37,088 nucleotides of DNA from a virus, in IMG/VR virus record IMGVR_UViG_3300028844_003966, positions 1 through 37,088 of that record, one strand, 5' to 3'. Both the position numbers and the translations under genes were made by a program. The notes below the pieces were generated by a model, which saw only the letters and a program-made list of their open reading frames with translations, made no database searches and was not told where the DNA came from. This document shows, one piece after another, positions 7,797 through 37,088 of this stretch (position 1 is its first letter; every line of letters starts with the position of its first letter).

Positions 7797-7797
7797 T

Positions 7798-10647: not shown

Positions 10648-10648
10648 T

Positions 10649-11395: not shown

Positions 11396-12509
11396 ATTTG
11401 AGTCTTACGGAGAAGAAGAAATTAAGGCGGTAGAGGAATCTTTACGTAGTGGATGGTTAGGAGGACAAGGACCTAAATCTGTTGAGTTTGAAAAAGCTAT
11501 TGCTAAAAGATTTGGTAAGAGATTTGGAGTTTTTGTTAACTCAGGTTCATCCGCTTGTTTATTAGCACTAGCGGCTTTAGACCTAATTAGAGGTTCTAAA
11601 GTGATAACACCCGCTTGTACATTCTCAACAACGTTAGCACCCATAATTCAGCTAGGGTATGAACCTGTATTTGTTGATGTCGGATTAACTAATTATGTGG
11701 CAGACATCGATGAGATTATTTCTGAAATAACTCCTGAAGTTAAAGCAATTATGTTACCTAATTTAATTGGTAATAAACCCGATTGGAAAAGACTTAAAAC
11801 CGAGTTAAAATTATTAGGTAGAGAAGATATCTATTTAATTGAGGATTCAGCAGACACTATAACTGAAACTATGGAGACTGATGTTGCAACCACTAGTTTT
11901 TATGCATCTCATGTTATTACCGCTGGAGGTGTTGGGGGGATGGTCATGTTTAATGATGAAAAACACGTTATAAAGTGTCTACAATACCGTGATTGGGGTA
12001 GATTGGGTAATGACTCAGAAATAATGGATGACAGATTTAATCACCAAGTCGATGGAATTCCTTATGACCACAAATTTTTATATAGTGTATTAGGTTATCA
12101 TATGAAATGTAGTGAAATGAATGCGGCTTTTGGTTTAGTACAATTAGAAAGATTTAAGAAGTTTTCTAAAATAAGAAGAGATAATTTTGAAAGGTATCTT
12201 GAGAATTTAAAGGGAGTAGGAGATTTAATACTTCCTGATGATATGATAAAACCTAATTGGTTAGCGATACCACTACAAACTGAGAAAAGATTTGAATTGT
12301 TGACGTTTTTAGAGAATAATAATATTCAAACTAGGGTCACATTCGCGGGTAATGTTACAAGACATCCCGTTTATCGTGAATATTTACAAGACTTTAAAAA
12401 TTCAGATACTATTATGAAAAATGGTTTCTTGATTGGGGCACATCACGGAATGACCCTTGAAGATGTTGATTACGTTTGTGATAAAATTAAAGAATTTTTT
12501 AATGGATAA
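11367..12509 (+). CDS. ColD/RfbH-like PLP-dependent sugar 3-dehydratase (DegT/DnrJ/EryC1/StrS fold)
   Basis: 380 aa, full length for the DegT family. The PLP-phosphate and ring contacts are visible: NSGSSACLLAL (58-68) and IEDSAD (158-163, D160). At the Schiff-base lysine position it has SFYASHVITAGG (177-188), so His182 replaces Lys. This exchange defines the PMP-dependent 3-dehydrases that make 3,6-dideoxyhexoses (GDP-sugar ColD, CDP-sugar RfbH/DdhC) rather than aminotransferases. RDWGR (208-212) and YDHKFLYSVLGYHMK (233-247) also match the RfbH family, but RfbH's 2Fe-2S cysteines are absent, closer to ColD in that respect. GGVGG replaces the usual GEGG. The substrate is inferred, not proven. 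Confidence 0.82.
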   Translation: MKKIWYAPYKFESYGEEEIKAVEESLRSGWLGGQGPKSVEFEKAIAKRFGKRFGVFVNSGSSACLLALAALDLIRGSKVITPACTFSTTLAPIIQLGYEPVFVDVGLTNYVADIDEIISEITPEVKAIMLPNLIGNKPDWKRLKTELKLLGREDIYLIEDSADTITETMETDVATTSFYASHVITAGGVGGMVMFNDEKHVIKCLQYRDWGRLGNDSEIMDDRFNHQVDGIPYDHKFLYSVLGYHMKCSEMNAAFGLVQLERFKKFSKIRRDNFERYLENLKGVGDLILPDDMIKPNWLAIPLQTEKRFELLTFLENNNIQTRVTFAGNVTRHPVYREYLQDFKNSDTIMKNGFLIGAHHGMTLEDVDYVCDKIKEFFNG

Positions 12510-13186
12510 TGAGACCTTTAATTTTAGGAGACGGATTATTAGGTTCTGAATTAATAAAACAAACTAAATGGGACTTTCTGTCTAGGAAGTCCCATAACTT
12601 TGATATCAAAAATTTTAGTGACTTTATTAAAGATGAATACGATATTATTATTAACTGTATCGCAAATACAAACACGTATTCAGAAGAAATGGACTCACAC
12701 TGGAATGTTAATGTTCAGTTTGTTAATGAACTAATTGACTATTGTAATGATAAAAATATTAAATTAGTACATATTTCTACAGACTATGTTTATACAGGGT
12801 CTGATATAAATGCCAATGAAAATACTGTTCCGGTTCATTGTAACACATGGTATGGTTATACTAAATTAGTTTCTGATGCGATAGTACAACTCAGGTCTAA
12901 TAACTACCTTTTAATAAGGTGTACTCAAAAACCAACACCATTTCCTTATGAAAAGGCATGGATAGACCAGATAGGTAATTTTGATTATGTTGATGTAATT
13001 TCTGATTTAATAATAAAATCAGTCAAAAAGAATTTATCAGGTCTATATAACTTAGGTACTGAGACTAAAACAATGTTTGAATTGGCGTCAAGAACCTCTA
13101 ATGTTAGTAAGTCCTTCTCACCTGTTAGTGTACCTAAGAATACGTCTATGAATGTGACTAAACTACTGACTGATTTAAATGAATAA
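12509..13186 (+). CDS. NAD(P)-dependent sugar reductase/epimerase, RmlD/ColC-like SDR
   Basis: 225 aa, short for an extended SDR (usually 280-320). The Rossmann motif is ILGDGLLGSEL (5-15). HISTDYVYTG (88-97) gives the catalytic Ser/Thr, and YGYTK (115-119) the Tyr-xxx-Lys pair. These are typical of dTDP-4-dehydrorhamnose reductase (RmlD) and related 4-keto-sugar reductases. Its start overlaps the stop of the ColD-like gene by one base, so the two are coupled. A ketoreductase is just what is needed to finish a dideoxysugar after a 3-dehydratase, as ColC does after ColD. The missing length is in the C-terminal substrate domain, so specificity is uncertain. Confidence 0.78.
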   Translation: MRPLILGDGLLGSELIKQTKWDFLSRKSHNFDIKNFSDFIKDEYDIIINCIANTNTYSEEMDSHWNVNVQFVNELIDYCNDKNIKLVHISTDYVYTGSDINANENTVPVHCNTWYGYTKLVSDAIVQLRSNNYLLIRCTQKPTPFPYEKAWIDQIGNFDYVDVISDLIIKSVKKNLSGLYNLGTETKTMFELASRTSNVSKSFSPVSVPKNTSMNVTKLLTDLNE

Positions 13187-13886
13187 CCCGTTTTTTTCAA
13201 TATCAATACCAACCTATGGTTATAACGGTAAAGGTTCGGAATTTTTAAACTTTAGTCTTTCTAAATTAAGTAGTCAGACTTTTAAAGATTTTGAAGTCGT
13301 TATATCAGACCACAGTACCGATAATACGATAAAAGATATTTGTAGTGTGTGGGGTGATAAGTTAGATATTAAACATCAGTTTAATGAAAGAGGAAGGGGG
13401 GTAATATCTCCTAATATAAATGAATCAATGAAGCGGTGTGAGGGTGAATGGATTAAGATACTATTTCAAGACGATTTTTTATATGATGAATTTTCATTAG
13501 AAAAACAATTTGATTTTATTAAAAATAATAATAAAATGATATGGTTTTTTTCTAAGTTTTATCACAGTAATGATGGGGTTAGATTTTACAGACTACACCA
13601 ACCAAAATGGAATAACACTGTATGGGCCGGTAACAATACTCTTGGTTGTCCTAGTGGGTTGACTATTAAAAATAAAGATATATTATTTTTTGATGAGAAC
13701 TTAAATTGGTTAATGGACTGTGATTATTATCATAGTATGTATTTAAAATATGGAGAACCCAACATATTAGATGACATAACTGTAGTTAATAGAACTTGGG
13801 GTAATCGATTAACTGATACCATAACACAAGAAATAAAAGATAGAGAATATATTATTGTAAGTAACAAATATGAAAAATCTAAATAA
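13179..13886 (+). CDS. GT2-family glycosyltransferase
   Basis: 235 aa. GT-A fold signatures: SISIPTYGYNGKG near the N-terminus, VVISDHSTDNT (40-50) and ILFQDDF (94-100) as DXD-equivalent metal site. WLMDCDYYHSMYLKYG near residues 185-200 fits the acceptor-side region. It overlaps the SDR gene by 8 nt and the following gene by 17 nt. It is a likely transferase for the sugar made by the two preceding enzymes, by position only. Confidence 0.82.
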   Translation: MNNPFFSISIPTYGYNGKGSEFLNFSLSKLSSQTFKDFEVVISDHSTDNTIKDICSVWGDKLDIKHQFNERGRGVISPNINESMKRCEGEWIKILFQDDFLYDEFSLEKQFDFIKNNNKMIWFFSKFYHSNDGVRFYRLHQPKWNNTVWAGNNTLGCPSGLTIKNKDILFFDENLNWLMDCDYYHSMYLKYGEPNILDDITVVNRTWGNRLTDTITQEIKDREYIIVSNKYEKSK

Positions 13887-14520
13887 TGTTACTTTAGTTT
13901 GTGTTACCTCAGTAAATATTGGTGGGTCTATTTATGCGTTGGAAAAATCTTGTAAAAATATTAAATTTAATGACGTTATTTTATTTACCGATTCTGACGT
14001 ATCACATGATTTTATAAAAATCATAAAAATACCTAAATTAGATTATATTAAATACAGTGAGTTTATTGTTTATGAATTACATAAACACATAGAGACTGAC
14101 TTTGTTTTGATAGTACAAAATGATGGATTTATTGTGAATTCTGAACAATGGAATGATAATTTTTTAAATTATGACTATATTGGGGCACCGTTTCCGATAC
14201 CAGATGAGAACGATAAAATATCATATAGAACACCTAAAAATGAATTGGTTAGGGTTGGTAATGGAGGATTTAGCCTAAGAAGTAAGAAATTATTATCATT
14301 ACCGACGGAATTAAATTTAGAGTGGAAATCTTATTTTAATTATTGGAATGAGGATGGATTTTTCTGTGTACATAACAGAGAAATTTTGGAAACTAATGGT
14401 TGTGTTTTTGCGCCAATCTCTGTCGCCGCACAATTTTCACATGAAAAGGAAACTAAAGAAACTGAAGGCATTATCCCTTTTGGGTTTCATGGTAAAAATA
14501 GTAAATATATTAATTTATAA
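13870..14520 (+). CDS. DUF5672-type putative glycosyltransferase
   Basis: 216 aa. Diagnostic stretches in order: VTLVCVTSVN at the start, DFVLIVQNDGFIV (77-89, carrying the NDG metal-site equivalent), YIGAPF, VGNGGFSLRSKKLL (129-142), NEDGFFC and a terminal PFGFHG. These match DUF5672, a family found in glycan clusters and thought to be a GT-A glycosyltransferase. The family is uncharacterised as to sugar. Overlaps neighbours by 17 nt and 1 nt. Confidence 0.8.
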   Translation: MKNLNNVTLVCVTSVNIGGSIYALEKSCKNIKFNDVILFTDSDVSHDFIKIIKIPKLDYIKYSEFIVYELHKHIETDFVLIVQNDGFIVNSEQWNDNFLNYDYIGAPFPIPDENDKISYRTPKNELVRVGNGGFSLRSKKLLSLPTELNLEWKSYFNYWNEDGFFCVHNREILETNGCVFAPISVAAQFSHEKETKETEGIIPFGFHGKNSKYINL

Positions 14521-15221
14521 TGTTTGATTTATTTACCATACTATACGAAGGTAACTATAAATTTTTTTTTGATGAAAAAAAATGGTTTTGGGTTTTTAAT
14601 AATAAAAATTTAAATAGTAAAATATTAGTAATTAATAATTTAGATAGTTTAGATGATTTAAATAACAAAATTGAAGATTTTAAAAGAAAATTTGAATTTA
14701 GTGTTGTTTATGTTACTAAAAATAAATTTATTGATTTTGGGGTGGATTACGATGCGTTTAGAACCTCTTCGATTTATTCCTCACCTTATTTCACTATGAT
14801 TGAACGATGTGACTCCGAATTTTTATTTTGTGTAAATGAAGACTGTATGAATAATCTATACATTTCAGAAGAATATGTAGAAAATTCTATTAAAACATTA
14901 ATATCTAATGAAAATTGTTTTTTTACAACGGTTTCATGGTCAGACGTAGAAAATACTGGGTTACATGAAATGTTAAACTGTAACTTAGACTTACATGAAA
15001 CCGAGTTTTTTTACCCATCTAATGGGTTTTCTGACCAACTTTTTTTCTGTAACATAGAAAAAATTAAATTAATTAATTTTAATTCTAAAAGTCACCCGTA
15101 TTTAGGACCTAAATATTGTGAAAATATGTGTTTTGAAAAGAAGGTGATGGACTTTTTTAAAACATATGTGAAGTATAGAATGATTTATAAAGGAAAAGAT
15201 TATTATATACACAATAAGTAA
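14520..15221 (+). CDS. Hypothetical protein of the glycan block
   Basis: 233 aa, very Phe/Asn/Lys-rich. I recognise no family. The layout (early hydrophobic strand, EFLFCVNEDCMNNLYIS around residues 99-115 where a GT-A enzyme has its DXD, and a terminal aromatic stretch) loosely resembles a GT-A transferase, but no clear motif is present. It is coupled by one-base overlaps (TAATG) to the genes on both sides, so a glycan function is inferred from context only. Confidence 0.6.
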   Translation: MFDLFTILYEGNYKFFFDEKKWFWVFNNKNLNSKILVINNLDSLDDLNNKIEDFKRKFEFSVVYVTKNKFIDFGVDYDAFRTSSIYSSPYFTMIERCDSEFLFCVNEDCMNNLYISEEYVENSIKTLISNENCFFTTVSWSDVENTGLHEMLNCNLDLHETEFFYPSNGFSDQLFFCNIEKIKLINFNSKSHPYLGPKYCENMCFEKKVMDFFKTYVKYRMIYKGKDYYIHNK

Positions 15222-15940
15222 TGGATAACAATAAGATAATAACCACAGGTGCTAAATTAATAATCACCGACTTTAATCATTTACCCGAAAACCCCAAGGA
15301 TTTTTGGATGGATGAATACACGGATAACTATATAGTGTATGATAAGGCGCATAGATTTAATGAAACTAATAAAATAATCCATAAAGAAAATTTAGGGTCA
15401 AACATACATGAGATATTTGACTTCATTCACAATCATTATGATGACTTACCCGAAATAATGATTTTTTGTAAAGGGGATGTTTTCCCACGACACTGCTCAG
15501 AAGAAAAATTTAAAAAAATAATAAATAACACAGAGTTCACACCAATACAAAACTATATAAGAAACACACCGAAATATTCCTATAACATTTATGCATATGT
15601 TGATGAAAACGATTTGTATTATGAGAAACCTATTGAGGTAAATACCACAGTTAGTAGGATACATAAAGCAAAATACATATTCAATTATCATCAGTTATTG
15701 AATGAAATTTTCGAAGACTCTTATGTCGGTGAATATATTTGTTTCGCGCCTGGCGCAAATTACATAATCACTAAAAATGATGCGTTAAAATTCAATAAAA
15801 ACTTTTATAAGACAATGTTAGGATTTATATCTTGGACCTCAATACCTGGTGAGTCTTATTTATTTGAAAGGGCATTATTCACAATTTATGGAAGTGATTT
15901 TATTATTAAAAATAAATATAAGAATAATGGTAACGACTAA
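15221..15940 (+). CDS. DUF3431-like protein, putative glycosyltransferase-related
   Basis: 239 aa. FDFIHNHYDDLPEIMIFCKGD around residues 66-86 (quoted as IHNHYDDLPEIMIFCKGD) followed by RHC, and GANYIITKNDALKFNKNFY later on, resemble the DUF3431 family, which occurs in glycan clusters and is thought to adopt a transferase-like fold. No catalytic assignment exists that I can verify. The last 14 nt overlap the next gene's chosen start. Confidence 0.6.
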   Translation: MDNNKIITTGAKLIITDFNHLPENPKDFWMDEYTDNYIVYDKAHRFNETNKIIHKENLGSNIHEIFDFIHNHYDDLPEIMIFCKGDVFPRHCSEEKFKKIINNTEFTPIQNYIRNTPKYSYNIYAYVDENDLYYEKPIEVNTTVSRIHKAKYIFNYHQLLNEIFEDSYVGEYICFAPGANYIITKNDALKFNKNFYKTMLGFISWTSIPGESYLFERALFTIYGSDFIIKNKYKNNGND

Positions 15941-16838
15941 TTTGACGGGTAATTTAGGGAATCACATGTGGCAGTACTCGGTTTGTAGGGTGGTCGCAGA
16001 AAAATTAGGATATGAATGGGGGGTAAACCCATCACCAACCCATGACTATCATCGAGGTATGAATCAAATGTATTTTATGGACGTTGATTTTGGTATATTT
16101 CCTGAAGGTGACTTTAATGACTTTCACGAAAAGTGGTTAACTTATAAACATGTTGACGATGTTAATATAACTATGTTAGATAAAAGAGTTTATGAAATAC
16201 CTGATTGGACTCGGTTGATTGGTGATAATGGAGCGTTTGGTGGAATATATCAGTCAGAAGATTATTTAATTGATAGAAAAAAGGATATCGTTGAGTGGTT
16301 TAAAATAAAAGATGTTTATAAAAATGAATATGATAAAAAATTAATCGATTTGGGTATTACTTTAGATGAGAATACCTGTGTAATTAATTTTCGTGGTGGA
16401 GAATATAAAAGTATACCTAATGTAATATTAAGGAAAGAATATTGGAAAAATTCAGTAGAACATATTAAAAATATAAATCCTAATATGAACTTTATTGTTA
16501 TTACTGATGACCCGAATACTGCGAATAGGTACATACCATATGGTTTTAAAACTTTTCATGTAGATATTGGATTTGATTTTTATGTAGTAAATAACGCTAA
16601 AAATTTAATTATATCAAACTCGACTTTTGGGTGGTGGGCCGCGTGGTTAAATACTAAATGTAATATTACCATCGCACCTAAATATTGGGCTAGACACAAT
16701 GTTAGTGACGGTTATTGGGCTACGGGTGATTCATACACAAGAGGGTTTACTTATATGGACAGAGAAGGTAAGTTATCTTTATATGATGAGTGTAAAACGG
16801 AAGCTATAAAATATTATAAACAAAAAGGGATATTATGA
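15927..16838 (+). CDS. GT11-family alpha-1,2-fucosyltransferase-like enzyme (first copy)
   Basis: 303 aa from the ATG at 15927. A longer reading from 15849 adds 26 residues without family similarity and overlaps the upstream gene by 92 nt, so it was rejected. The GT11 signature near the N-terminus is TGNLGNHMWQY. The peptide INFRGGEY is the counterpart of the family's HxRRGDY donor motif, here altered. FVITDD and LIISNSTFGWWAAWL are the third and fourth motifs. Known GT11 enzymes move L-fucose from GDP-fucose to the 2-OH of galactose. The altered GGEY motif makes donor or acceptor identity uncertain. A second family member is at 17692. Confidence 0.82.
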   Translation: MVTTNLTGNLGNHMWQYSVCRVVAEKLGYEWGVNPSPTHDYHRGMNQMYFMDVDFGIFPEGDFNDFHEKWLTYKHVDDVNITMLDKRVYEIPDWTRLIGDNGAFGGIYQSEDYLIDRKKDIVEWFKIKDVYKNEYDKKLIDLGITLDENTCVINFRGGEYKSIPNVILRKEYWKNSVEHIKNINPNMNFIVITDDPNTANRYIPYGFKTFHVDIGFDFYVVNNAKNLIISNSTFGWWAAWLNTKCNITIAPKYWARHNVSDGYWATGDSYTRGFTYMDREGKLSLYDECKTEAIKYYKQKGIL

Positions 16839-17689
16839 GTAAAATCTACGATTGCTTTAATTTCTTTAACGAATTAGATATTTTAGAATTAAGATTAAAT
16901 ATTCTAAATGACTATGTAGATTATTTTGTCATCGTTGAATCTGATGTAAGTCATTCGGGAGAAAAAAAACAATTTAATTTTGAGATTAATAAATCTCGTT
17001 ATAATAAATTCATAGATAAAATAATTTATTATAAAATTACCGATACCCCGAACGATTTTTTAAACCTAAATGAAACCGAAGATGTCGAATTAAATAAAAT
17101 CAATGAATTTATTATTAAACAAACTAACAGATTTAATCGTAAAACTCAACAGGATTATGGTAGAGACTTCTTTCAAAAAGAATCAGTAAGAAGACCGTTA
17201 ATTAATTGTAATGATGATGATATTATTTTATTTTCAGATTTGGATGAAATACCTAATCCTGAAATCATAAACGAGTTGAGTGGGTATGATTTAGGCCACA
17301 AAATACTTAGTTTACGACAAAATACGTATTATTACTATTTAAATGTATTTAAACAGTCCGACTGGTACGGAACTAAGATATTAAAATATAAAAATCTTAA
17401 GGACTTATCGTTAAATGAAGTAAGGGGTGATGTAACTCTTAGTGACAAGATTGATAATGGAGGATGGCATTTTAGTTTTATGGGTGGTAAAAAAATGGTT
17501 GAAAAAAAACTAACTTCATATTCGGCCAAAGACTTATCATCTAAAAGAGTTTTAGAATCAATCGAATATAATATTGAAAATAACATAGACCCTTTTTTTA
17601 GAGGTAAGTTAGAAACTGTAGAAATTGATAATACTTTTCCTGAGTATTTGAGGAATAATATAAACTCATTTAATCACCTAATAAAATAA
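16835..17689 (+). CDS. GT17-like glycosyltransferase
   Basis: 284 aa. The N-terminus KIYDCFNFFNELDILELRLN followed by DYFVIVES and SHSG is typical of family GT17 (the family of the bisecting beta-1,4-GlcNAc transferase and its bacterial and viral relatives). SDLDEIPNP (134-142) carries the DXD-type metal site, and GWHFSFMGG (210-218) is the other diagnostic block. It overlaps the fucosyltransferase-like gene by 4 nt. The sugar donor in phages is not known. Confidence 0.85.
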   Translation: MSKIYDCFNFFNELDILELRLNILNDYVDYFVIVESDVSHSGEKKQFNFEINKSRYNKFIDKIIYYKITDTPNDFLNLNETEDVELNKINEFIIKQTNRFNRKTQQDYGRDFFQKESVRRPLINCNDDDIILFSDLDEIPNPEIINELSGYDLGHKILSLRQNTYYYYLNVFKQSDWYGTKILKYKNLKDLSLNEVRGDVTLSDKIDNGGWHFSFMGGKKMVEKKLTSYSAKDLSSKRVLESIEYNIENNIDPFFRGKLETVEIDNTFPEYLRNNINSFNHLIK

Positions 17690-17691
17690 TT

Positions 17692-18468
17692 TTGATTACC
17701 TGTGCTTTACAAGGAGGTCTAGGAAATCAGATGTTTCAAATATCATCTGCGATTGGTCATGCAGTTAAATATAATATCAATTATGGGTTTGATTTAAATT
17801 ATTGTCACACACCAGCGCAGGGAAATGTCGCTAACAAATATAAAAATAATTTCTATAAAAATTTAAATTTAATAGACAATTTAAATGAAATACCAAACCT
17901 AAAAATTTTTAGAGAAAAAGGATTTTTTTATCAAGAAATTCCACACGAAAACAATTTATGTTTGGTCGGTTATTTTCAGTCTGAAAAATATTTTAAACAC
18001 GTAAAACCTTTAATAAAAAATACTTTTGAATTTGACAATTTAATTAAGTTTGAGGTAAAAAACTTTATTAATTCTTTTAGTGGTAAAACATGTGCGGTTC
18101 AAGTTAGAAGAGGGGATTATGTTAAATTACCTAATTACCACTTAGTTTGTGATATAAATTATTACAATAATTCTATGAGTTATGTAGGACACGATGTTAA
18201 TTTCATATTCATATCAGATGACATCGATTGGTGTAAAGAGAACTTTAAAGGAGATAATATATTTTATAGTCCGTTTAATGATGAAATATATGATTTGTGT
18301 CTTATCTCTGAGTGTAACCATAAAATAATATCAAATAGTAGTTTTGGTTGGTGGGGTACATGGTTATCAGATAAAGAAGGAGTAACTGTATGTCCTAAAA
18401 GATGGTTTAATGACGGAGGTCCGAAAGACTATCAAGATATTTACTTAGATAACTGGGTCAAAATTTAA
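17692..18468 (+). CDS. GT11-family alpha-1,2-fucosyltransferase-like enzyme (second copy), TTG start
   Basis: 258 aa. All GT11 blocks are canonical: LQGGLGNQMFQ (6-16), VQVRRGDYV, FIFISDD and IISNSSFGWWGTWLS. The first block normally follows the start by about five residues, and the only codon that fits is TTG at 17692, so a non-ATG start is likely. It is diverged from the copy at 15927 and has the intact RRGDY the other lacks, so the two probably differ in specificity. Last gene of the glycan block; 62 nt to the next gene. Confidence 0.87.
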   Translation: MITCALQGGLGNQMFQISSAIGHAVKYNINYGFDLNYCHTPAQGNVANKYKNNFYKNLNLIDNLNEIPNLKIFREKGFFYQEIPHENNLCLVGYFQSEKYFKHVKPLIKNTFEFDNLIKFEVKNFINSFSGKTCAVQVRRGDYVKLPNYHLVCDINYYNNSMSYVGHDVNFIFISDDIDWCKENFKGDNIFYSPFNDEIYDLCLISECNHKIISNSSFGWWGTWLSDKEGVTVCPKRWFNDGGPKDYQDIYLDNWVKI

Positions 18469-21228: not shown

Positions 21229-22059
21229 ATGGAAAAATTAAATATATCAGTAGTATTACCTATAGAATCGTCTAAACATAAAAATTTTGATTCTTTACTG
21301 AATGGTTGTATTACCTCGTTAAAAAATCAGATTAAAGTGTGTCCTGAAAGAGGTGACGTAGTCGGAGATATTGAACTTAATATTGTTCACACGGGGGAAG
21401 AGTCATTGTTAGAAAAATTAAATAGTTATGACTATAGTGGATTAACTTATAACTTAATTCATAATGAGGGAAACTCAGACTTTTGTAGTCAAGTTAATTA
21501 CGGAATAAGTAAATCATCATATAAATGGGTCAGTATCTTAGAGTTTGATGATGAGTACTCAAGTATATGGTTTAAAAATGTCTCCCGTTACGTGGAGTCG
21601 TATCCTGATGTTAAGGCGTTTTTACCATTAGTTGTCGATACTGATGAAAAAGGTGTTTTTGCTGGCTTTACTAATGAGGCGACTTTTGCCGCTAACATGA
21701 ACAGTGAGATTGGAATTTTAACCAATGAGGTGTTGCTAAATTACCAAAATTTTCAAACAAGTGGTACTGTATTTGACAAGTCTTTGTTTGATGACTTTGG
21801 GGGATTTAAAAAGTCTATAAAACTAACATTCGTATATGAATTATTATTGAGACTTACTTACAATTCTGTAAATATAATGACAATTCCTAGAATCGGATAC
21901 AAACACTCAAATATGAGGGAGGGTTCAATATTTTGGAATTATAAGTTTGGGTCTAATCCTATGACTCAAGACGAGGTTAGTTTTTGGATAGAGTCTGCGA
22001 AAAAAGAACATTTCTTTAAAGAAGATAGGGATATAAAATATGAACTAGTTAATCCTTAA
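21229..22059 (+). CDS. GT2-like glycosyltransferase
   Basis: 276 aa. GT-A layout: ISVVLPIESSKHKNFDSLL at the start, VSILEFDDEYSS around residues 101-112 as metal-site equivalent, and TSGTVFDKSLFDDFGGF (acceptor side). The first motif is degenerate compared with ordinary GT2 enzymes of this window. Gene overlaps the sigma factor start by one base (TAATG), so it is co-expressed with late control. Confidence 0.72.
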   Translation: MEKLNISVVLPIESSKHKNFDSLLNGCITSLKNQIKVCPERGDVVGDIELNIVHTGEESLLEKLNSYDYSGLTYNLIHNEGNSDFCSQVNYGISKSSYKWVSILEFDDEYSSIWFKNVSRYVESYPDVKAFLPLVVDTDEKGVFAGFTNEATFAANMNSEIGILTNEVLLNYQNFQTSGTVFDKSLFDDFGGFKKSIKLTFVYELLLRLTYNSVNIMTIPRIGYKHSNMREGSIFWNYKFGSNPMTQDEVSFWIESAKKEHFFKEDRDIKYELVNP

Positions 22060-22802
22060 TGAATTTATCCGGCACCAGTGAAGATAATCAAATAAAAAAA
22101 AGAGGTAGGAAGAAAAAACCTCAAAACTATTTTGATGTTAGGGAAGAAAAGGCTGTTAGGCTTTTTCTTTCCGCATCGACTTGGTCCGAAAAAAATGAGA
22201 TATATAACGAGTTTTTAAGGGGTCCTTTAGATAAGATGATTGAGTCTATTATACGTAGATATAAATTATATAGAAAAGGTATGGAGTTTAAAGATATACA
22301 TCATGATACTCATTCATTTTTAATGACTAAAGTTGACAAATTTAAACCAGATAAAAACAAAAAGGCTTACTCATATTTTGGTACTATTTGTAAAAACTAT
22401 CTTATGGGTCAAATAATAAAAGACCAAAAAGAACAAAATAGAAAAATATCATATGAGGATATCACCACAAAATTAGAAAGTCGTCCTGATATGATTTATT
22501 ATTTAGAATATGAAAAGGTGGTGCCTGAACAAGTAATAAAAGAATTTATAAAAGAACTTGATAGATTTATGAATGAAACCGACCTAAACAATAATGAAAT
22601 TAAATTAGGTTATGCTTTAATGGAGTTATTTGAAAATTATGAAGAAATATTCATAGGTACTGATAATAACAAATTCAATAAAAATATCATACTCCTATCT
22701 CTTAGAGAAATGACAAATATGACTACAAAAGAGATAAGGACATCCATGAAAAAATTTAAAAATCTTTATTTTGACCTTAGCATAAAACTAAACAATCTAT
22801 AA
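22059..22802 (+). CDS. Late-transcription sigma factor, T4 gp55-like
   Basis: 247 aa (T4 gp55 is 185). Residues about 60-133 match a minimal sigma region 2: LDKMIESIIRRYKLYR, then KDIHHDTHSFLMTKVDKF, then AYSYFGTICKNYLMGQIIKD with basic and aromatic positions used in -10 recognition and core binding. The N-terminus is Lys/Arg-rich (KKRGRKKKPQ). Full region 4 is not visible, as in gp55. The C-terminus ends with LYFDLSIKLNNL, which could serve as a sliding-clamp-binding tail as gp55's does; that is inference. It would direct host RNA polymerase to late promoters, probably the TATTTATA sites found in this window. Confidence 0.78.
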   Translation: MNLSGTSEDNQIKKRGRKKKPQNYFDVREEKAVRLFLSASTWSEKNEIYNEFLRGPLDKMIESIIRRYKLYRKGMEFKDIHHDTHSFLMTKVDKFKPDKNKKAYSYFGTICKNYLMGQIIKDQKEQNRKISYEDITTKLESRPDMIYYLEYEKVVPEQVIKEFIKELDRFMNETDLNNNEIKLGYALMELFENYEEIFIGTDNNKFNKNIILLSLREMTNMTTKEIRTSMKKFKNLYFDLSIKLNNL

Positions 22803-30633: not shown

Positions 30634-32379
30634 TTATCTTAACTCTCTTAGGTCAAATGTTCTAACACCATCAACCATGATTCTACCGTAGAATCTGTTG
30701 TTCACCATCTTCTTAGCGTATCTTGTCATGATACCCTTGATTGGTGTGAAGTTGAATGGGTTATACATTGTTGGTGTCAACTGAAGAGGTACGTATGGAG
30801 CGTATACATATCCTGTATCAAGTAACGATGAACCTTTGTGTCCCAACAATACTGTGTTTGGTGGGAAGTAAGGGTCACGGTAAACCTGATATCTACCTGA
30901 TAATGTACCTACTCTTTCGATACCCATGTTGTACTGGTCCTGGTCAGGAGCCGCGTTTGAAACGTGGAAGTACTCAAGGTCGTCAAAGATTGCTGAAATC
31001 TCAGAAGAGACAACAATCCAGTTAGCACCACCTCTTAAAGTAGACTTATGGATTTGAGCAGAAATCTGATTGATTGCTGTAATCAATGTCTGATTCCAAT
31101 CCTTTTGGTTGTACGCAGTTGAAGTAGTGTTTAACTTTCTCCATCCATCGTAGTCCCATCTTAATGTCCAAGCCGCACCTTTTCTTAAGTCTCTTAAGAT
31201 TTCACGGTCGATTTCAGCCGCAACCTGCTCTGACAACAATGCTGTCAATTCAGCCTCAGCGTCAATGTTGTGGAACGCTGAAACGTCTTGAGCGAGTTCT
31301 GGTGACCACTGAGCTCTTAACTTTCTTTCTGTTACAGAAACAGTAACAGCCTCTAAGTCAAACGAAACTTCACCGATAGCGTCTTCGAATTCCAATGTTT
31401 CGTAGATTCTGTAATCAGCTTGTAAAGTCCATGCAGTGACTGTCTGTCCAGTATAACCGTCAACAGTGGCATCACCACCAAGTGCAACTGGTACACTACT
31501 ATCAATAGACAAGTAGATGACACCGTCAGCATCACAAATGTTATCATATGAACCACCAGGTCCATCAGTTGGGAATGTAGTTGGTGTAGATGAACCGTAC
31601 TGAACGATACCCTTACCATACTTCTGAGTTACAACTCTGAATGGTAAATAAGTTTTGGTTGAACCTGTGTAGTAAACTTGCAATGAAGAAAGGAATTCTT
31701 CAGTGTCCATAGCGTTACCGTCAGGTCCGATTAACTTACCAGCACCTGCGTTTGAGAAACCTGATAATGCAACTAAGATTTCTTTTACGTTAAGACCTGT
31801 GTAGTCTGAACCCAATGAACCGACTACTAGCTCACCACTACTCCACTTAACAGCGGTCAATGACTTTGTTACATCACTAAACTTACCTTTAGAGTAGTCA
31901 AACAATCCTGCTGGGTCATCCTCAGGGATTTCACCTTCGTAGAAACGGTCATACAAGTTTGTTGCATTAGTGTAACCTGAAGTGCTTGATGTAGGACCAC
32001 CTGGTGCTCCGAATGGAGGGATGTGTGAACCGTCAGAATTTCTGTTCTGAATCTTTGGTACAAAGTAGAACAACTTACCGATTGGTAGGTTCATAGCCTG
32101 TACAGAAACGATGTCGTTAGCCAACAACTTAGAGAAAACTCTTCTTACGATTGGGAAAACAACAGTTTCAAAAGAACCTGAACTGTCAGAAGCAGCTGCT
32201 TCGTTTATCAAATGAGACGCTTGGTTTTCATACAACTGCGCCATATTTTCTTTTAAGTGACCCTTAAGTCCGTCGAGGAACCCTAACTTGTCCCACTTGT
32301 TGATTGTGTCTTCCTTGATAACTTTTAAGTGCTTAAGACCGATGTTACCAACTAGACCTGATTCTAATAATGCTCCCAT
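30634..32379 (-). CDS. Major capsid protein, T4 gp23-like
   Basis: 581 aa (T4 gp23 is 521). After an N-terminal helical prodomain, ETVVFPIVRRVFSKLLANDI then VQAMNLPIGKLFYF matches the conserved gp23 stretch at the start of the mature HK97-type fold. LRAQWSPELAQDVSAFHNID and AEIDREILRDL are typical of the later region. The T4 protease consensus is (I/L)xE; INE at residues 58-60 followed by AAAS lies where T4 gp23 is cut, so E60 is the probable maturation site. Codons are shifted to C-ending Asn, Phe, Tyr and Ile codons compared with most genes here, as in a very highly expressed gene. No TATTTATA box precedes it; expression likely runs from the box before the scaffold gene. Confidence 0.92.
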   Translation of the reverse strand: MGALLESGLVGNIGLKHLKVIKEDTINKWDKLGFLDGLKGHLKENMAQLYENQASHLINEAAASDSSGSFETVVFPIVRRVFSKLLANDIVSVQAMNLPIGKLFYFVPKIQNRNSDGSHIPPFGAPGGPTSSTSGYTNATNLYDRFYEGEIPEDDPAGLFDYSKGKFSDVTKSLTAVKWSSGELVVGSLGSDYTGLNVKEILVALSGFSNAGAGKLIGPDGNAMDTEEFLSSLQVYYTGSTKTYLPFRVVTQKYGKGIVQYGSSTPTTFPTDGPGGSYDNICDADGVIYLSIDSSVPVALGGDATVDGYTGQTVTAWTLQADYRIYETLEFEDAIGEVSFDLEAVTVSVTERKLRAQWSPELAQDVSAFHNIDAEAELTALLSEQVAAEIDREILRDLRKGAAWTLRWDYDGWRKLNTTSTAYNQKDWNQTLITAINQISAQIHKSTLRGGANWIVVSSEISAIFDDLEYFHVSNAAPDQDQYNMGIERVGTLSGRYQVYRDPYFPPNTVLLGHKGSSLLDTGYVYAPYVPLQLTPTMYNPFNFTPIKGIMTRYAKKMVNNRFYGRIMVDGVRTFDLRELR

Positions 32380-32406: not shown

Positions 32407-33669
32407 TTATTTTAATTTACTCATTAAATCTTTCATTCTTAAGAACTGAGGATTTTCATAAGTTTTACTCTCAATTAGATTGTTAGCAGAACCCTTAGTA
32501 GGTGTCTTAGTAACTTTAGATTGTACTGATTCAGTAACAACATTTTGTTCCTTACCTCCCAAGTCTTCTTTAACTGTCTTATAAAGAGATTTTGATTCTT
32601 TAAGAGTTTCGACACCATCGAAACGTCTTAATATATTTATTTTTTCTTGCTTCGTTGTAGAATGTTCTGTGAATAAACGTGTAGCGTATGCCAAGTTAGA
32701 ATTAAATACCGCGACCTCATTTAACTTTTCCTTAAAGATGTTGAGTGCTTTTCTGTACTCTTCATTCTTTTCTCTAAGTTGAGTTAGTTCTTTTTGAACT
32801 GACTCATTATAACGAGATTTGTTTGGAATAGTTTTTGGTTTTGGTAAACCCTTACTCTTTTCTGAAGAGGCTCTTTGACCTTGAGCTAAACTTCTTTCGG
32901 TCATTTCTTCCTCTTCTTCAGACATTTCTTCTTCAGTGGTTTCGTAATCTTTGTGAGACTTAGAGTCGTCACCTTTCTTACCTCCCCAACCTTCACCCAT
33001 TTCTTCATGAGTTTCTTCTTCTTCGTAAGCTTCTTCTTCTTCACCAATTTCGATTTCATATACAACGTCTTCTTCTTCGTAAGCTTCGTCACCTTCAGAC
33101 ACTTCGTCTTCAGTTTCCATAACTTCTTCTTCATCTTCTGATTCACCTAACTGAATCACATATTCTGCGTCTGTTTCGGTATCGGCCAAATGAACATCAT
33201 CACCGTCTTGTTTAACAATGATACCATCATCTTCACCCATAGCCTTAAAGACCTTTAAGATTTCGTCGTCAGAAGCTGCAGTTAAATCGAGTGGTAAAAG
33301 AACTTCTTCTTCGTCGTCAACTTCCAAGTCGTCACCAGGTAAATCAGTCATTAACATTTCCTCATCACCCATTTCCAACTCTTCGTCTTCTTCATTATCA
33401 GAAAGTGCGTCGTCTAAGTCTAATTCAAGACCTTCTTCCTCACCTTCATCTTCATCCTCAACATCCATATCTAATTCAAGTTCTCCTTGTTCAGATATTT
33501 CAGTATCAGAAAGTTCAATCTCATCTTCTTCAGATAAAGATTCTTTTACTAATTCGCTGATTTCTTCCTTCATAGTAGAAGCAAGTATTCCTTTTGCATT
33601 GTTTGTAATAGCCTCTTGCAAGTTTTCCATTTGCAATAAAGCTTCTTCAACTAAGTTTTTTTCTGCCAT
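32407..33669 (-). CDS. Prohead core scaffolding protein, gp22-like
   Basis: 420 aa. Residues about 45-245 are extremely Glu/Asp-rich (long E/D runs). Residues 285-345 form a coiled coil (LTQLREKNEEYRKALNIFKE). The C-terminus is basic and ends PQFLRMKDLMSKLK. T4 gp22 is a helical acidic scaffold lying between protease and capsid genes; this gene has the same position and character. T4 gp22 is smaller (269 aa), so the acidic insert is extra. It is presumably degraded by the prohead protease. Upstream is the palindrome-embedded late motif at 33701. Confidence 0.8.
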   Translation of the reverse strand: MAEKNLVEEALLQMENLQEAITNNAKGILASTMKEEISELVKESLSEEDEIELSDTEISEQGELELDMDVEDEDEGEEEGLELDLDDALSDNEEDEELEMGDEEMLMTDLPGDDLEVDDEEEVLLPLDLTAASDDEILKVFKAMGEDDGIIVKQDGDDVHLADTETDAEYVIQLGESEDEEEVMETEDEVSEGDEAYEEEDVVYEIEIGEEEEAYEEEETHEEMGEGWGGKKGDDSKSHKDYETTEEEMSEEEEEMTERSLAQGQRASSEKSKGLPKPKTIPNKSRYNESVQKELTQLREKNEEYRKALNIFKEKLNEVAVFNSNLAYATRLFTEHSTTKQEKINILRRFDGVETLKESKSLYKTVKEDLGGKEQNVVTESVQSKVTKTPTKGSANNLIESKTYENPQFLRMKDLMSKLK

Positions 33670-33783: not shown

Positions 33784-33834
33784 TTTCGTACATGTATACG
33801 ATATTTATATACTTTCGTATCTACATACGATATT
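33784..33834. repeat. Tandem pair of 22-nt imperfect palindromes
   Basis: Copy 1 33784-33805 and copy 2 33813-33834 share TTTCGTA and ATACGATATT, 18 of 22 bases identical, with a 29-nt period. Each is itself an inverted repeat (TCGTA...TACGA). They lie between the end of the DUF4494 gene and the terminator, and overlap a plus-strand TATTTATA at 33802-33809. Confidence 0.75.
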
Positions 33835-34042
33835 ACTCGTAAACTTCGTCAATTTTACTTTCTACACATGCTGTGATTCTCCAATCATATGTAAAGTCTT
33901 TGAAGTTTTGTGTCACTTTAGATTCTACATCGGTAACGTTATACCCCTTAACCAACTTCTCTTCTCTAATCTTTTTGATTTTACCTGAGTTCTCATCAGG
34001 AAGGTCATACTGTACCTTTGCAACAAAATATTTTTCGTCCAT
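33833..34042 (-). CDS. DUF4494-like small protein
   Basis: 69 aa: YFVAKVQYDLPDENSGKIKK, then EEKLVKGYNVTDVESKV and WRITACVESKIDEV. This is the pattern of DUF4494, a small alpha/beta family largely restricted to Bacteroidota and their phages (family knowledge from memory), with unknown function. It lies 21 nt downstream of the protease gene. Its presence supports a Bacteroidota host. Confidence 0.72.
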   Translation of the reverse strand: MDEKYFVAKVQYDLPDENSGKIKKIREEKLVKGYNVTDVESKVTQNFKDFTYDWRITACVESKIDEVYE

Positions 34043-34063: not shown

Positions 34064-34786
34064 TTAATAACCTAAATAATCGGAAAGTCTTTTCATTAAG
34101 TCAACACTTGCACCTAATCCACCGTCAATTCTTGGTTCCTGTGAACGTAGTTGAGTCTCTTCTTCCAAGTTCTCCTCATACTTACCTCTGTCGTCTTTAT
34201 TTAAGAAAAGGTATGCTCCTGGTGTAGAAGGTGACGACACCAAGTCAAAACAGATTAATTCAAAATCATCCTGTACTTCATTTCTTTCCCCCTTCTTTAC
34301 GAGTGAACCTACACCACGAGAAGAAACACCCATAGTAACACCTTGTCTCATTAGATTGGCTGCTTGGTCACCAGGACAAGACACCACACCTCTTTCGTGA
34401 AAACCTGGTGAAGTTAAAAGTTTTATCTTACCCATAAGAGTATTACCTTCCCACCATATCTCAGTGATAAGGTGTGATACTCTGTCCAAATCAATTAATG
34501 ATGATTCAGGGTGGTTAAGTTCTGAGATAGACAATCCTTTTTGAATCGCTTTGTTATATGCGTCAGCCTCTCTCCTTAATATCTTTTCAGGATATACCCT
34601 TCCGTTACGGTTGGGGGTGTCATACTTCTGTAAAGTGGCGTAAAACTCAAAAGGTTTTGAATGGTCTAAATGACCATAGGATTCTCTAATCACTTCTGCG
34701 TTACGACTATCGTGCGGGTTAATTGTTCCTGCGTCCCACTCAACTAAAATACCCCTACCCGTATCGTTTGGTCCTAATATATTCAT
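34064..34786 (-). CDS. Prohead maturation protease, T4 gp21-like
   Basis: 240 aa. The gp21-family catalytic residues are recognisable: H92 in SELNHPESS (88-96), S155/S156 in GVTMGVSSRGVGS (149-161), and D181 in FDLVSSPSTPGAYL (180-193). The N-terminal YDTPNRNGRVYPEKIL motif is also typical. The enzyme sits inside the prohead core and cuts scaffold and capsid at (I/L)xE sites, allowing expansion and DNA entry. It lies next to scaffold and capsid genes as in T4 (21-22-23). The C-terminal acidic tail may be removed by self-cleavage. Confidence 0.92.
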   Translation of the reverse strand: MNILGPNDTGRGILVEWDAGTINPHDSRNAEVIRESYGHLDHSKPFEFYATLQKYDTPNRNGRVYPEKILRREADAYNKAIQKGLSISELNHPESSLIDLDRVSHLITEIWWEGNTLMGKIKLLTSPGFHERGVVSCPGDQAANLMRQGVTMGVSSRGVGSLVKKGERNEVQDDFELICFDLVSSPSTPGAYLFLNKDDRGKYEENLEEETQLRSQEPRIDGGLGASVDLMKRLSDYLGY

Positions 34787-35261: not shown

Positions 35262-35290
35262 TTTACTTAAAGTTTATTTATTTAAGTAAA
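35262..35290. promoter_or_regulatory. Perfect 10-bp inverted repeat, operator candidate
   Basis: TTTACTTAAA (35262-35271) and TTTAAGTAAA (35281-35290) are exact complements with a 9-nt spacer. The right arm touches the -7 box of the minus-strand promoter at 35288-35295, so it covers the predicted transcription start of gene 34807-35250. Confidence 0.55.
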
Positions 35291-35319
35291 ATATAGTATA
35301 TTATTAGTCTTATGTCAAA
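35288..35319 (-). promoter_or_regulatory. Bacteroidota-type promoter (TTTG - 20 nt - TATATTTT)
   Basis: On the minus strand, TTTG at 35319-35316, a 20-nt spacer and TATATTTT at 35295-35288, one base from TAnnTTTG. It leads into the gene starting at 35250. Confidence 0.5.
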
Positions 35320-35327
35320 AAAAGTCA

Positions 35328-35335
35328 TATTTATA
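35328..35335 (+). promoter_or_regulatory. TATTTATA motif, candidate late promoter of the bS21 gene
   Basis: GTCATATTTATATATAATGC, ending 4 nt before the ATG at 35340. Too close to allow a normal leader. Confidence 0.48.
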
Positions 35336-35339
35336 TATA

Positions 35340-35525
35340 ATGCTAATAGTAAAAGTTAAAAAAGGTAATATAGAAAGGGCTCTTAAAGAGTATAAGTACA
35401 AAGCACATAGGACTAAACAAATGCAAAAGATTAGAGATAATCAAGAATATACTAAAGATTCTGTAATACGAAGAGAAGAAAAAAAGAAAGCAATTTATGT
35501 AAATAAAAAAAGGGACTCTGAATGA
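35340..35525 (+). CDS. rpsU: Phage-encoded ribosomal protein bS21
   Basis: 61 aa, the normal length. MLIVKVKKGNIERALKEYK, then TKDSVIRREEKKKAIYVNKK match bS21 along the whole length: the MLI-V-V-G-NIERAL-yk start, the K-SV-RRE turn, and the basic C-terminal helix with Y53. bS21 binds the 30S platform near the 3' end of 16S rRNA, where the anti-Shine-Dalgarno lies. Here one plus-strand gene is set among minus-strand head genes. Its stop codon lies inside the terminator hairpin. A late-type motif ends 4 nt before the ATG. Confidence 0.88.
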   Translation: MLIVKVKKGNIERALKEYKYKAHRTKQMQKIRDNQEYTKDSVIRREEKKKAIYVNKKRDSE

Positions 35526-35537
35526 GTCCCTTTTTTT
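35505..35537. terminator. Bidirectional intrinsic terminator between bS21 and membrane-protein genes
   Basis: GGGACTC (35512-35518), TGAAT loop, GAGTCCC (35524-35530), extended by A and T runs on each side. Terminates the plus bS21 gene and the minus unit ending at 35537. Confidence 0.92.
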
Positions 35538-35767
35538 TATTCTTCTGACCCCCTATTTCGGGAGAACTTTTCAATTGTTGTAAATCCTAATCCTGCACCT
35601 ACTATATACATCATACCATCCCAAACAAATTGTTGTAGAGGTATATCCATAAAGATATTTGCAAGGAAGGCGATACACATCATAAAAAATGCTAAGATGG
35701 TAATAAATCTTTTAGATGATTTTTGACCATCCACATCACCCATTAAGGACATGAAAAATTTTTTCAC
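35537..35767 (-). CDS. Small membrane protein, holin-like
   Basis: 76 aa. The N-terminus MSLMGDVDGQKSSKR is cytoplasmic and charged. It is followed by two hydrophobic segments, about 21-41 (FITILAFFMMCIAFLANIFM) and 50-64 (WDGMMYIVGAGLGFT), and a short charged tail EKFSRNRGSEE. Size, two membrane spans and short tails fit a class II holin, which sets the time of lysis. No endolysin is seen nearby, so the role is uncertain. Overlaps the preceding membrane-protein gene by 4 nt. Confidence 0.62.
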   Translation of the reverse strand: MKKFFMSLMGDVDGQKSSKRFITILAFFMMCIAFLANIFMDIPLQQFVWDGMMYIVGAGLGFTTIEKFSRNRGSEE

Positions 35768-35973
35768 TTTAGTTTACTTAAAACCCACCCTTTTAAAAGG
35801 TCCCAGTTTCTGGTAAAGAAAACACCGAAGGCAACACCCGCGAAAATTTTCTGACCTGTAGTCCACAGGAATAAACCTAAGAGTAATCCAACGATACCTT
35901 CAATACCGTTAGCGACAACCCAATCTTTACATAGGTTGTAAATTCTTAATACGAAATCTTTAATTGTAGTCAT
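35764..35973 (-). CDS. Small membrane protein
   Basis: 69 aa with one clear hydrophobic stretch, residues about 22-53 (NGIEGIVGLLLGLFLW, then GVAFGVFF), possibly two short spans, and a basic end WVLSKLK. Overlaps both neighbours by 4 nt. Together with the next gene it makes a pair of small membrane proteins like holin and partner, by context only. Confidence 0.58.
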   Translation of the reverse strand: MTTIKDFVLRIYNLCKDWVVANGIEGIVGLLLGLFLWTTGQKIFAGVAFGVFFTRNWDLLKGWVLSKLK

Positions 35974-36704
35974 AATCCTTTTTCTAATTGTTTTAATTTA
36001 TACAATGAGGTTAATGTTTGTTTAGACTCATTGATTTTGTTTATTGTTTTCTGAATTTTGTCTTTTAAATCTGTATCGGTAGACTCATTTAGGTTTACCT
36101 GTAACTTTTCTAAAATTTGTTTTTTAGTTTTTTCTATCTCTTCAGTTAAGTTTTTACCTTTTAATGAGGTGTAGAAATTAAGTTCTTTTTTTTCTTCTTC
36201 ACTTAACGTCTCTATTTCTTTATTAAGTGTTTTGTTGGCGATTGACATCATAGAAGATATTGGTAAATTTATATTTCTATTTTCCTCGGTAACTTTTTTT
36301 GATAATAAAGTTCTTTTAATTCTCTGTTTTGACTCCAACAAGGACTCCAATTCTTTAACTACGTTTTTAGTATAAATTTGTTTGTCAATATCTTCGTAGT
36401 TGTTGTCAACATCCTCTTTAAGTAGGTCATTTATCCACTCACTTAATTCTTCTATTTTTTTCTTATTATTGTCTATAATAGTCTTTAAGTGGTCAAAAGA
36501 TTCTGTAATGTAATCATCAACAATACTTTCATTTAAACCTTTTTCAGATGATAATTCATCATAAAGGTAATACGCCTCAGATATTGATTTATTCTTTATT
36601 ACGTGGGACGCAAACCCTTTAAGATTATCTTTGAAAGACGGTTTACCGTAACTACTTTCTAACAATCTTTCTATTTTAGTTTTTATTATTCCGAATGAAC
36701 TCAT
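35970..36704 (-). CDS. Helical head-module protein, possibly prohead core
   Basis: 244 aa, nearly all helix with long coiled-coil stretches (EEIEKTKKQILEKLQVNL, IINELEKQ-like heptads), rich in Lys, Glu and Ser, no membrane segment. The T4 counterpart region holds the small core proteins gp67 and gp68 between portal and protease, so a core role fits position and character but is not proven. Preceded by TATTTATT at 36719-36726, 14 nt from its ATG. Confidence 0.55.
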   Translation of the reverse strand: MSSFGIIKTKIERLLESSYGKPSFKDNLKGFASHVIKNKSISEAYYLYDELSSEKGLNESIVDDYITESFDHLKTIIDNNKKKIEELSEWINDLLKEDVDNNYEDIDKQIYTKNVVKELESLLESKQRIKRTLLSKKVTEENRNINLPISSMMSIANKTLNKEIETLSEEEKKELNFYTSLKGKNLTEEIEKTKKQILEKLQVNLNESTDTDLKDKIQKTINKINESKQTLTSLYKLKQLEKGL

Positions 36705-36726: not shown

Positions 36727-37088
36727 TCAATCTTTTAGTAATGCGTTCAATTTATCCTCAATTTCACCTAGTGAATGTCTACCTTTTGATAAATCCAAAA
36801 TACTTTTTCCGTTAATTAGGTCGTCCTCAACTAATAAATCTAAATCTTTATTTCTTACAAATCTTTCTACTGGTACCTCTTCTGGTGATTCTCCACCTCC
36901 TTCATCTCCACCACCTAAATCATCACCACCTAAATCACCACCACCTAAATCACCACCACCTAAATCACCACCAAAGTCTAAACCTCCCCAACCTGATGGT
37001 GGAGCACCTCCTAAGTCACCCATTCCAGTATCTGTAGTTTCACCACCTTCGGCATCACCACCCTCACCAGGTTTGTTACCATATAACT
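36727..37088 (-). CDS. C-terminal part of a head protein, perhaps portal (gp20-like), 5' end outside window
   Basis: The frame stays open to the right edge, so only the last 120 residues are present. An internal Met at 37023 is not the real start, since the upstream frame reads GGETTDTGMGDLGG without a stop. It has a Gly/Asp repeat tract (GGGDLGGGDLGG) and a C-terminal helical acidic part (LDLLVEDDLINGKSILDL, ALLKD). Position directly upstream of the core-protease-scaffold-capsid series is that of the portal gene in T4, and Gly-rich acidic C-termini occur in such portals. The assignment is by synteny only. Confidence 0.5.
   Translation of the reverse strand, partial: LYGNKPGEGGDAEGGETTDTGMGDLGGAPPSGWGGLDFGGDLGGGDLGGGDLGGDDLGGGDEGGGESPEEVPVERFVRNKDLDLLVEDDLINGKSILDLSKGRHSLGEIEDKLNALLKD
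36908..36975. repeat. 15-bp tandem repeat encoding the Gly-Gly-Asp-Leu tract
   Basis: CCTAAAT recurs at 36914, 36929, 36944 and 36959, always 15 nt apart, with near-identical CACCACC spacers. Codes for repeated GGGDL units in the portal-like gene and is in frame. Confidence 0.85.

What the first reader, a model, noticed from the sequence alone, without database searches (positions are those of the whole stretch)
35340..35525. Phage-encoded ribosomal protein bS21 among the capsid genes
A complete bS21 lies as the only plus-strand gene inside a minus-strand head module, with its own late-type motif and its own terminator. In Bacteroidota, bS21 helps sequester the anti-Shine-Dalgarno sequence (established for Flavobacterium ribosomes), and this genome has few Shine-Dalgarno sequences. 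A late phage bS21 could replace the host copy and shift translation toward phage mRNAs, including those with very short leaders. Phage bS21 is known from metagenomes, but its position and link to late control here deserve attention.
Basis: partly seen in the sequence, partly recalled or inferred. Interest (0 to 1): 0.85.

Follow-up and report, generated by a model that had tools for sequence, protein, structure and literature searches.

The report
Phage copy of ribosomal protein bS21
A virus of Bacteroidota bacteria carries its own copy of a small ribosomal protein among its shell genes, an arrangement already published for related viruses; what looks new is that the viral copy usually lacks the start signal by which the closest bacterial relatives ration this protein.

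Summary
Window 35340-35525(+) encodes a complete 61-aa bS21, the only plus-strand gene in a minus-strand T4-like head module. It has a phage late-type motif (TATTTATA, 35328-35335). Its terminator is real but bidirectional, shared with the convergent gene.

This arrangement is published: Chen et al. 2022 (PMC9723584) described bS21 on the opposite strand of the head module in Bacteroidetes phages, expressed late, with Tyr54 kept and ribosome substitution proposed. I found the same layout in most of 80 bS21 loci, and divergent bS21 in 78 of 80 loci that carry the neighbour gene. The window is a new member of a known kind.

Three details I did not find in the papers held: (1) the bS21-neighbour gap carries two divergent promoter-like elements, TATTTAT for bS21 (53/55) and a TTGAC-N18-TATA type for the neighbour (54/55). 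(2) Phage bS21 leaders lack the extended Shine-Dalgarno (SD) sequence used for rpsU autoregulation: 0 of 33 and 0 of 56 distinct leaders below -13 kcal/mol, against 29 of 30 Flavobacteriaceae rpsU. (3) Phage bS21s form one clade beside an SD-less second bS21 of Flavobacteriaceae.

Best reading: a functional late bS21, uncoupled from host feedback, that fills host 30S subunits. Preference for phage mRNAs remains untested.

The parts
35340..35525 (+). bS21 coding sequence, 61 aa, Tyr53 = Tyr54 of F. johnsoniae
   Evidence: PF01165 above cut-off; F. johnsoniae bS21 7jil_z E 1.9e-8; residue table
35328..35335 (+). TATTTATA, phage late-type promoter-like motif, 12 nt before the bS21 ATG
   Evidence: enriched before starts in the window and relatives; on the bS21 strand in 53/55 distinct intergenic regions
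35290..35318 (-). TTGACA-N17-TATATT, promoter-like element for the divergent neighbour g147
   Evidence: 11 of 12 consensus matches; TTGAC-N16-20-TA..[AT]T in 54/55 regions against 0.8 in shuffles
35505..35537 (.). bidirectional intrinsic terminator overlapping the 3' end and stop codon of bS21
   Evidence: stem kept with changed letters in the relative L009
34807..35250 (-). g147, at the position of Chen's bS21_CN; hypothetical protein, possibly a neck or tail-completion protein
   Evidence: 78/80 g147 loci have divergent bS21 beside it; model pLDDT 89.8; weak fold hits
34064..34786 (-). prohead protease (Peptidase_S77)
33833..34042 (-). DUF4494 protein
32407..33669 (-). acidic scaffold/core-like protein, named from position and composition
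   Evidence: position between protease and capsid; no family match
30634..32379 (-). major capsid protein Gp23
   Evidence: PF07068 E 1.5e-73
35537..35767 (-). g76, small putative membrane protein convergent with bS21
   Evidence: sequence; conserved in relatives
35764..35973 (-). g69, small putative membrane protein
35970..36704 (-). g244, conserved head-module protein, preceded by TATTTAT
36727..37023 (-). ORF resembling the C-terminal end of the portal protein; probably continues beyond the fragment
   Evidence: resembles by eye the end of the 606-aa ORF beside g244 in L211

Best explanation
The gene makes a working bS21 late in infection that enters host 30S subunits in place of, or in addition to, the host protein. 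It keeps the anti-SD tail of 16S rRNA sequestered through the conserved C-terminal Tyr and so keeps ribosomes suited to the phage's SD-less, short-leader mRNAs. Its own mRNA lacks the extended SD of Flavobacteriales rpsU, so its synthesis should not fall as ribosomes become replete. By filling bS21-less subunits it should also turn down host rpsU through the host's own feedback, without needing a protease against host bS21. Shown here: family membership, kept core residues, purifying selection, conserved place and late-type motif, absence of the extended SD. Shown by others: late transcription in relatives, bS21 autoregulation in F. johnsoniae, incorporation of another phage's bS21 into E. coli ribosomes. 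Inferred: incorporation of this protein, escape from feedback, repression of host rpsU.
For: bS21 identity. Residues conserved in bacteria and kept here include K7, K17, K20, K22, T26, K40, S42, R46, A52, Y54 in F. johnsoniae numbering. dN/dS 0.02-0.21 in 13 usable close pairs. Conserved divergent place. Late-type motif on the bS21 strand in 53/55. No leader below -13 kcal/mol in 33 or 56 distinct phage leaders, against 29/30 Flavobacteriaceae rpsU. Autoregulation by bS21-less ribosomes needs an extended SD (PMC9976891). Late transcription with capsid genes in related phages (PMC9723584).
Against: No protein, RNA or ribosome data for this phage. The host is inferred, not known: in a broader Bacteroidia sample only 7 of 30 bS21 genes had leaders below -13, so lack of an SD is unremarkable if the host is not a Flavobacteriales. 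A few relatives do carry an SD: AAAAGGAGG at -12.2 in L239 and L251, AGGAG at -7 to -8 in L008, L010 and L030. Two of 80 g147 loci lack bS21, so it is dispensable. Many phage genes lack SDs, so an SD-less leader could be simple adaptation to phage-style leaders. The freshwater jumbo group lacks TATTTAT before bS21.
Confidence: 0.55

Rival explanations
1. Specialised ribosomes: phage bS21 replaces host bS21 and, through its altered N-terminal helix and linker, makes ribosomes prefer phage mRNAs over host mRNAs (the hypothesis of Chen et al. and of the first reader).
For: Phage-specific changes lie in the N-terminal helix and linker (F. johnsoniae positions 21-35 and 41), while the C-terminal anti-SD contact is kept (PMC9723584). 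Phage bS21s form one clade.
Against: I found no measurement of mRNA preference. Host mRNAs in Bacteroidota are also SD-less, so the basis for discrimination is unclear. The one tested viral bS21 lowered general translation in E. coli (PMC6375957).
Confidence: 0.2
2. Plain dosage supply: late infection outruns host bS21 synthesis, and the phage copy merely keeps new or damaged 30S subunits complete, with no change in specificity or in host regulation.
For: bS21 joins 30S subunits last and can dissociate (PMC9976891); core residues are kept.
Against: The consistent phage-specific residues and separate clade suggest more than a spare copy.
Confidence: 0.15
3. Translation poison or remodelling factor: phage bS21 makes ribosomes that work poorly on host mRNAs and so shuts down host synthesis.
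For: Ribosomes with pelagiphage bS21 had about 5% activity in an E. coli system (PMC6375957).
Against: Expression is late, when the phage itself needs most translation (PMC9723584); the E. coli result may be a cross-species mismatch.
Confidence: 0.05
4. The protein is packaged in the virion and acts at the start of the next infection.
For: The gene sits among head genes with a late-type motif; Chen et al. raise the possibility.
Against: No sequence feature for packaging was seen; the opposite strand and separate promoter do not suggest a structural protein.
Confidence: 0.05

Closest known systems
bS21-encoding Bacteroidetes myophages, clades a-e (Chen et al. 2022, PMC9723584)
   Same: bS21 on the strand opposite to the capsid, protease and portal genes, next to a conserved hypothetical gene; aromatic residue at position 54; large T4-like phages of Bacteroidetes
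   Different: Here bS21 has a TATTTAT motif 12 nt before the ATG, which the freshwater jumbo-type relatives lack; freshwater origin is not shown for the window. Clade membership (TerL tree) could not be tested because no TerL was identified in the fragment.
bS21 (rpsU) of Flavobacterium johnsoniae (7JIL; PMC9976891)
   Same: Same protein family, about the same length, Tyr54 and core residues kept
   Different: The phage gene lacks the extended SD and thus the known autoregulation signal; differs at G27, R35, P41 and in most of the N-terminal tip
Second bS21 gene of Flavobacteriaceae, often downstream of rpoD
   Same: No SD in the 20 fetched copies; the tree puts phage bS21s next to it
   Different: Chromosomal; distinct KHRNVKVMQNLR segment; the join rests on 64 alignment columns
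Pelagiphage HTVC008M bS21 (PMC6375957)
   Same: bS21 carried by a lytic myovirus, incorporated into ribosomes when tested in E. coli
   Different: Alphaproteobacterial bS21 type, acquired from another host lineage

Membership tests
Ribosomal protein bS21 (PF01165) | Match above the curated family score over nearly the whole model | tested here: met
   36.6 bits against 27, model positions 2-54 of 55. The NCBIfam equivalog TIGR00030 scores 25.3 against its 28.95 cut-off, so it is a divergent member
Bacteroidota-type bS21 with anti-SD sequestration | Aromatic residue at the position of Tyr54 of F. johnsoniae | tested here: met
   Tyr53 in the window; Tyr 92% and Phe 8% in 40 phage sequences
Bacteroidota-type bS21 with anti-SD sequestration | Measured occlusion of the anti-SD on the 30S platform | not testable with these tools
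   needs a ribosome structure or reporter assay
Autoregulated Flavobacteriales rpsU | Extended SD with predicted pairing below -13 kcal/mol | tested here: not met
   window leader about -1 kcal/mol; 0/33 and 0/56 phage leaders against 29/30 Flavobacteriaceae
bS21-encoding Bacteroidetes phages of Chen et al. | bS21 on the reverse strand inside the TerL/portal/protease/MCP region, next to a conserved hypothetical gene | tested here: met
   TerL itself not seen in the fragment
bS21-encoding Bacteroidetes phages of Chen et al. | Late transcription together with core structural genes | not testable with these tools
   only a late-type motif is seen
bS21-encoding Bacteroidetes phages of Chen et al. 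| Placement in TerL clades a-e | not tested
   no TerL identified in the window

The most novel reading that the evidence does not exclude
Phages of Flavobacteriales exploit the host's bS21 feedback. By making bS21 from an SD-free, nearly leaderless late mRNA, they saturate bS21-less ribosomes, so that the host's own autoregulation switches off host rpsU while the phage gene keeps being translated; host bS21 is replaced without being destroyed.
Probability: 0.3. Interest if true: 0.75.

Novelty: new member of a known kind. Interest (0 to 1): 0.45.

Why it matters
Whether phage ribosomal proteins really reprogram ribosomes is open. Bacteroidota offer an unusually clean test, because bS21 there controls access to the anti-SD and its own synthesis is the one well-described SD-dependent event. 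The contrast found here (strong SD on nearly every Flavobacteriaceae rpsU sampled, none of that strength on phage bS21) gives a simple prediction that an existing F. johnsoniae reporter can test.

Tried and rejected
No Rfam family reached threshold in the window, so no described leader RNA; no tRNAs. A sigma-70-like match on the plus strand (35312-35341) was rejected as the bS21 promoter because its second hexamer overlaps the ATG. A known function for g147 was sought by fold: no reliable PDB match (best E 0.02), one strong viral match of unknown function, weak likeness to neck and tail-completion proteins. g147 has no match in the phage record collection, nor has the head-module DNA. The idea that g147 strictly depends on bS21 was rejected: L211 and L250 have g147 without bS21. 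The genome-contig scan for bacterial relatives returned only two loci because the pattern limit was reached; the genome search replaced it. Two further paper searches gave nothing on phage bS21 beyond the papers cited. The main structural paper on anti-SD sequestration (Jha et al.) is not held, so contact residues beyond Tyr54 were judged by conservation only. No structure of bS21 itself was predicted.

Full report
What is there. Window 35340-35525(+) encodes MLIVKVKKGNIERALKEYKYKAHRTKQMQKIRDNQEYTKDSVIRREEKKKAIYVNKKRDSE, a bS21 by Pfam (36.6 bits, cut-off 27) and by comparison with solved ribosomes (F. johnsoniae 7jil chain z, E 1.9e-8). The record is a 37,088-base virus fragment with one bS21. 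Around it, on the minus strand, lie the Gp23 capsid protein, a scaffold-like protein, DUF4494, a prohead protease, g147, two small putative membrane proteins, g244 and an ORF that resembles the end of a portal protein. The arrangement is T4-like. The nearest cultured capsid relatives include Flavobacterium phages of the immuto group (about 42% identity).

The place is conserved. A scan of IMG/VR with the protein gave 80 loci. In most of them the order capsid, core, DUF4494, protease, g147 (minus), bS21 (plus), then g244 (minus) is the same, down to 30-50% identity of the flanking proteins. A minority carry bS21 elsewhere, near a sigma-like gene (L037, L040, L073, L079) or with no head gene hit beside it (L029, L034, L062). 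A second scan with the neighbour g147 gave 80 loci (overlapping the first set); 78 have bS21 on the opposite strand, 88-120 nt away. L211 and L250 have g147 but no bS21. bS21 evolves under purifying selection (dN/dS 0.02-0.21 in 13 usable pairs).

This is already published in outline. Chen et al. 2022 (PMC9723584) described 47 phage genomes, up to 331 kb, with bS21 on the reverse strand among terminase, portal, protease and capsid genes, Bacteroidetes hosts, an aromatic residue at position 54, late transcription, and a co-transcribed neighbour (bS21_CN) on the opposite strand. They proposed substitution into ribosomes and preference for phage transcripts. g147 has the position of bS21_CN; the identity of the two families was not tested, because their sequences were not at hand.

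Promoter-like elements. TATTTAT stands upstream of 9 of 51 window genes (0.87 expected by shift). In relatives it precedes protease (24/24 distinct upstreams), core (12/13), g244 (10/12) and bS21 (13/34), often about 20 nt before the start. In the wider g147 sample it lies on the bS21 strand in 53/55 distinct intergenic regions, against 10 in shuffles. The freshwater jumbo-type group has TATATATC there instead. g147 itself is preceded by TTGAC-N16-20-TA..[AT]T in 54/55 regions, against 0.8 in shuffles, which resembles a housekeeping-sigma promoter. So the two divergent genes appear to use two kinds of promoter. No transcript ends are known. If the TATTTAT element works at the distance of a T4 late promoter (my knowledge, not tested), the window's bS21 mRNA, with the motif 12 nt before the ATG, would be almost leaderless; most relatives have 19-29 nt.

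The terminator. A 14-pair stem at 35505-35537 with A and T tracts on both sides includes the bS21 stop codon and can act on both convergent units. Similar stems, with changed letters in the stem, occur at the same place in several relatives (L009, L010, L014, L029, L030, L034, L036, L060), and none in others.

The leader. In F. johnsoniae, ribosomes lacking bS21 have a freed anti-SD and translate rpsU through an exceptionally strong SD; strengths below -13 kcal/mol mark rpsU in about 80% of Flavobacteriales (PMC9976891). I computed pairing with a 13-base 16S tail typed from general knowledge. Of 30 Flavobacteriaceae rpsU leaders, 29 were below -13. Of 33 distinct phage leaders from the first scan none were, nor of 56 from the second (the two sets overlap somewhat). 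Two phage leaders come close (L239 and L251, -12.2), and a subgroup near the window has AGGAG at about -7 to -8 (L008, L010, L030), in an insertion that the window lacks (alignment). In a wider Bacteroidia sample, chosen by match score, only 7 of 30 were below -13, so the contrast depends on the host being a Flavobacteriales. McNutt et al. speculate that phages might encode a protease against host bS21 and that autoregulation would counter it; neither they nor Chen et al., in the parts I read, mention the phage leaders.

Descent. In a tree of 122 bS21s (64 columns; many forks unresolved) the 40 phage sequences form one group (96/69) and lie beside a second chromosomal bS21 of Flavobacteriaceae (96/89 for the join, with one long-branched MAG sequence between). 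That second gene, often downstream of rpoD, lacks an SD in the 20 copies fetched and in Olleya. Long branches make the join uncertain.

Residues. Positions nearly invariant in bacteria and kept in the window (F. johnsoniae numbering): M1, K7, A15, L16, K17, K20, K22, T26, K40, S42, V43, R46, A52, Y54.

Judgement. Family, place, late-type motif and lack of an extended SD are shown. Incorporation into ribosomes, escape from feedback and any mRNA preference are inferred. The finding is a new member of a published kind; the leader contrast is the part worth following.

Noticed in passing
L084 and L154-L173 (Flavobacteriaceae genomes): Many Flavobacteriaceae carry a second bS21 gene, often just downstream of rpoD, with a distinct KHRNVKVMQNLR segment and no SD in any of the 20 fetched copies or in Olleya, unlike canonical rpsU. 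No account of it was found in the papers searched.
   Followed up: partly
window 35290-35318 (-) and relatives L174-L252: Near-universal TTGAC-N18-TATA element before g147, back to back with the TATTTAT element of bS21, followed by a conserved AATAAAC about 25 nt before the g147 start (49/55).
   Followed up: partly
L056, L065, L066, L075 (freshwater jumbo-type contigs): bS21 is preceded by TATATATC instead of TATTTAT, although other late genes in the same contigs have TATTTAT.
   Followed up: no
L239 and L251 upstream of bS21: Two phage bS21 genes have an AAAAGGAGG leader (-12.2 kcal/mol), close to the host rpsU type: a natural contrast for testing the role of the SD.
   Followed up: no
L250:2674-2946 (-): In one of the two g147 loci without bS21 a different small opposite-strand ORF with a lipoprotein-like start lies in its place.
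   Followed up: no
window 22059-22802 (+): Weak sigma-70-like protein (PF04542 E 0.0026, TIGR02937 E 1.3e-4), a candidate phage sigma factor that might read the TATTTAT motif.
   Followed up: no
window 5887-18468 (+): Long block of genes that look by eye like glycosyltransferases, a DegT-type aminotransferase and sugar epimerases, with a dUTPase-like gene, between structural genes.
   Followed up: no
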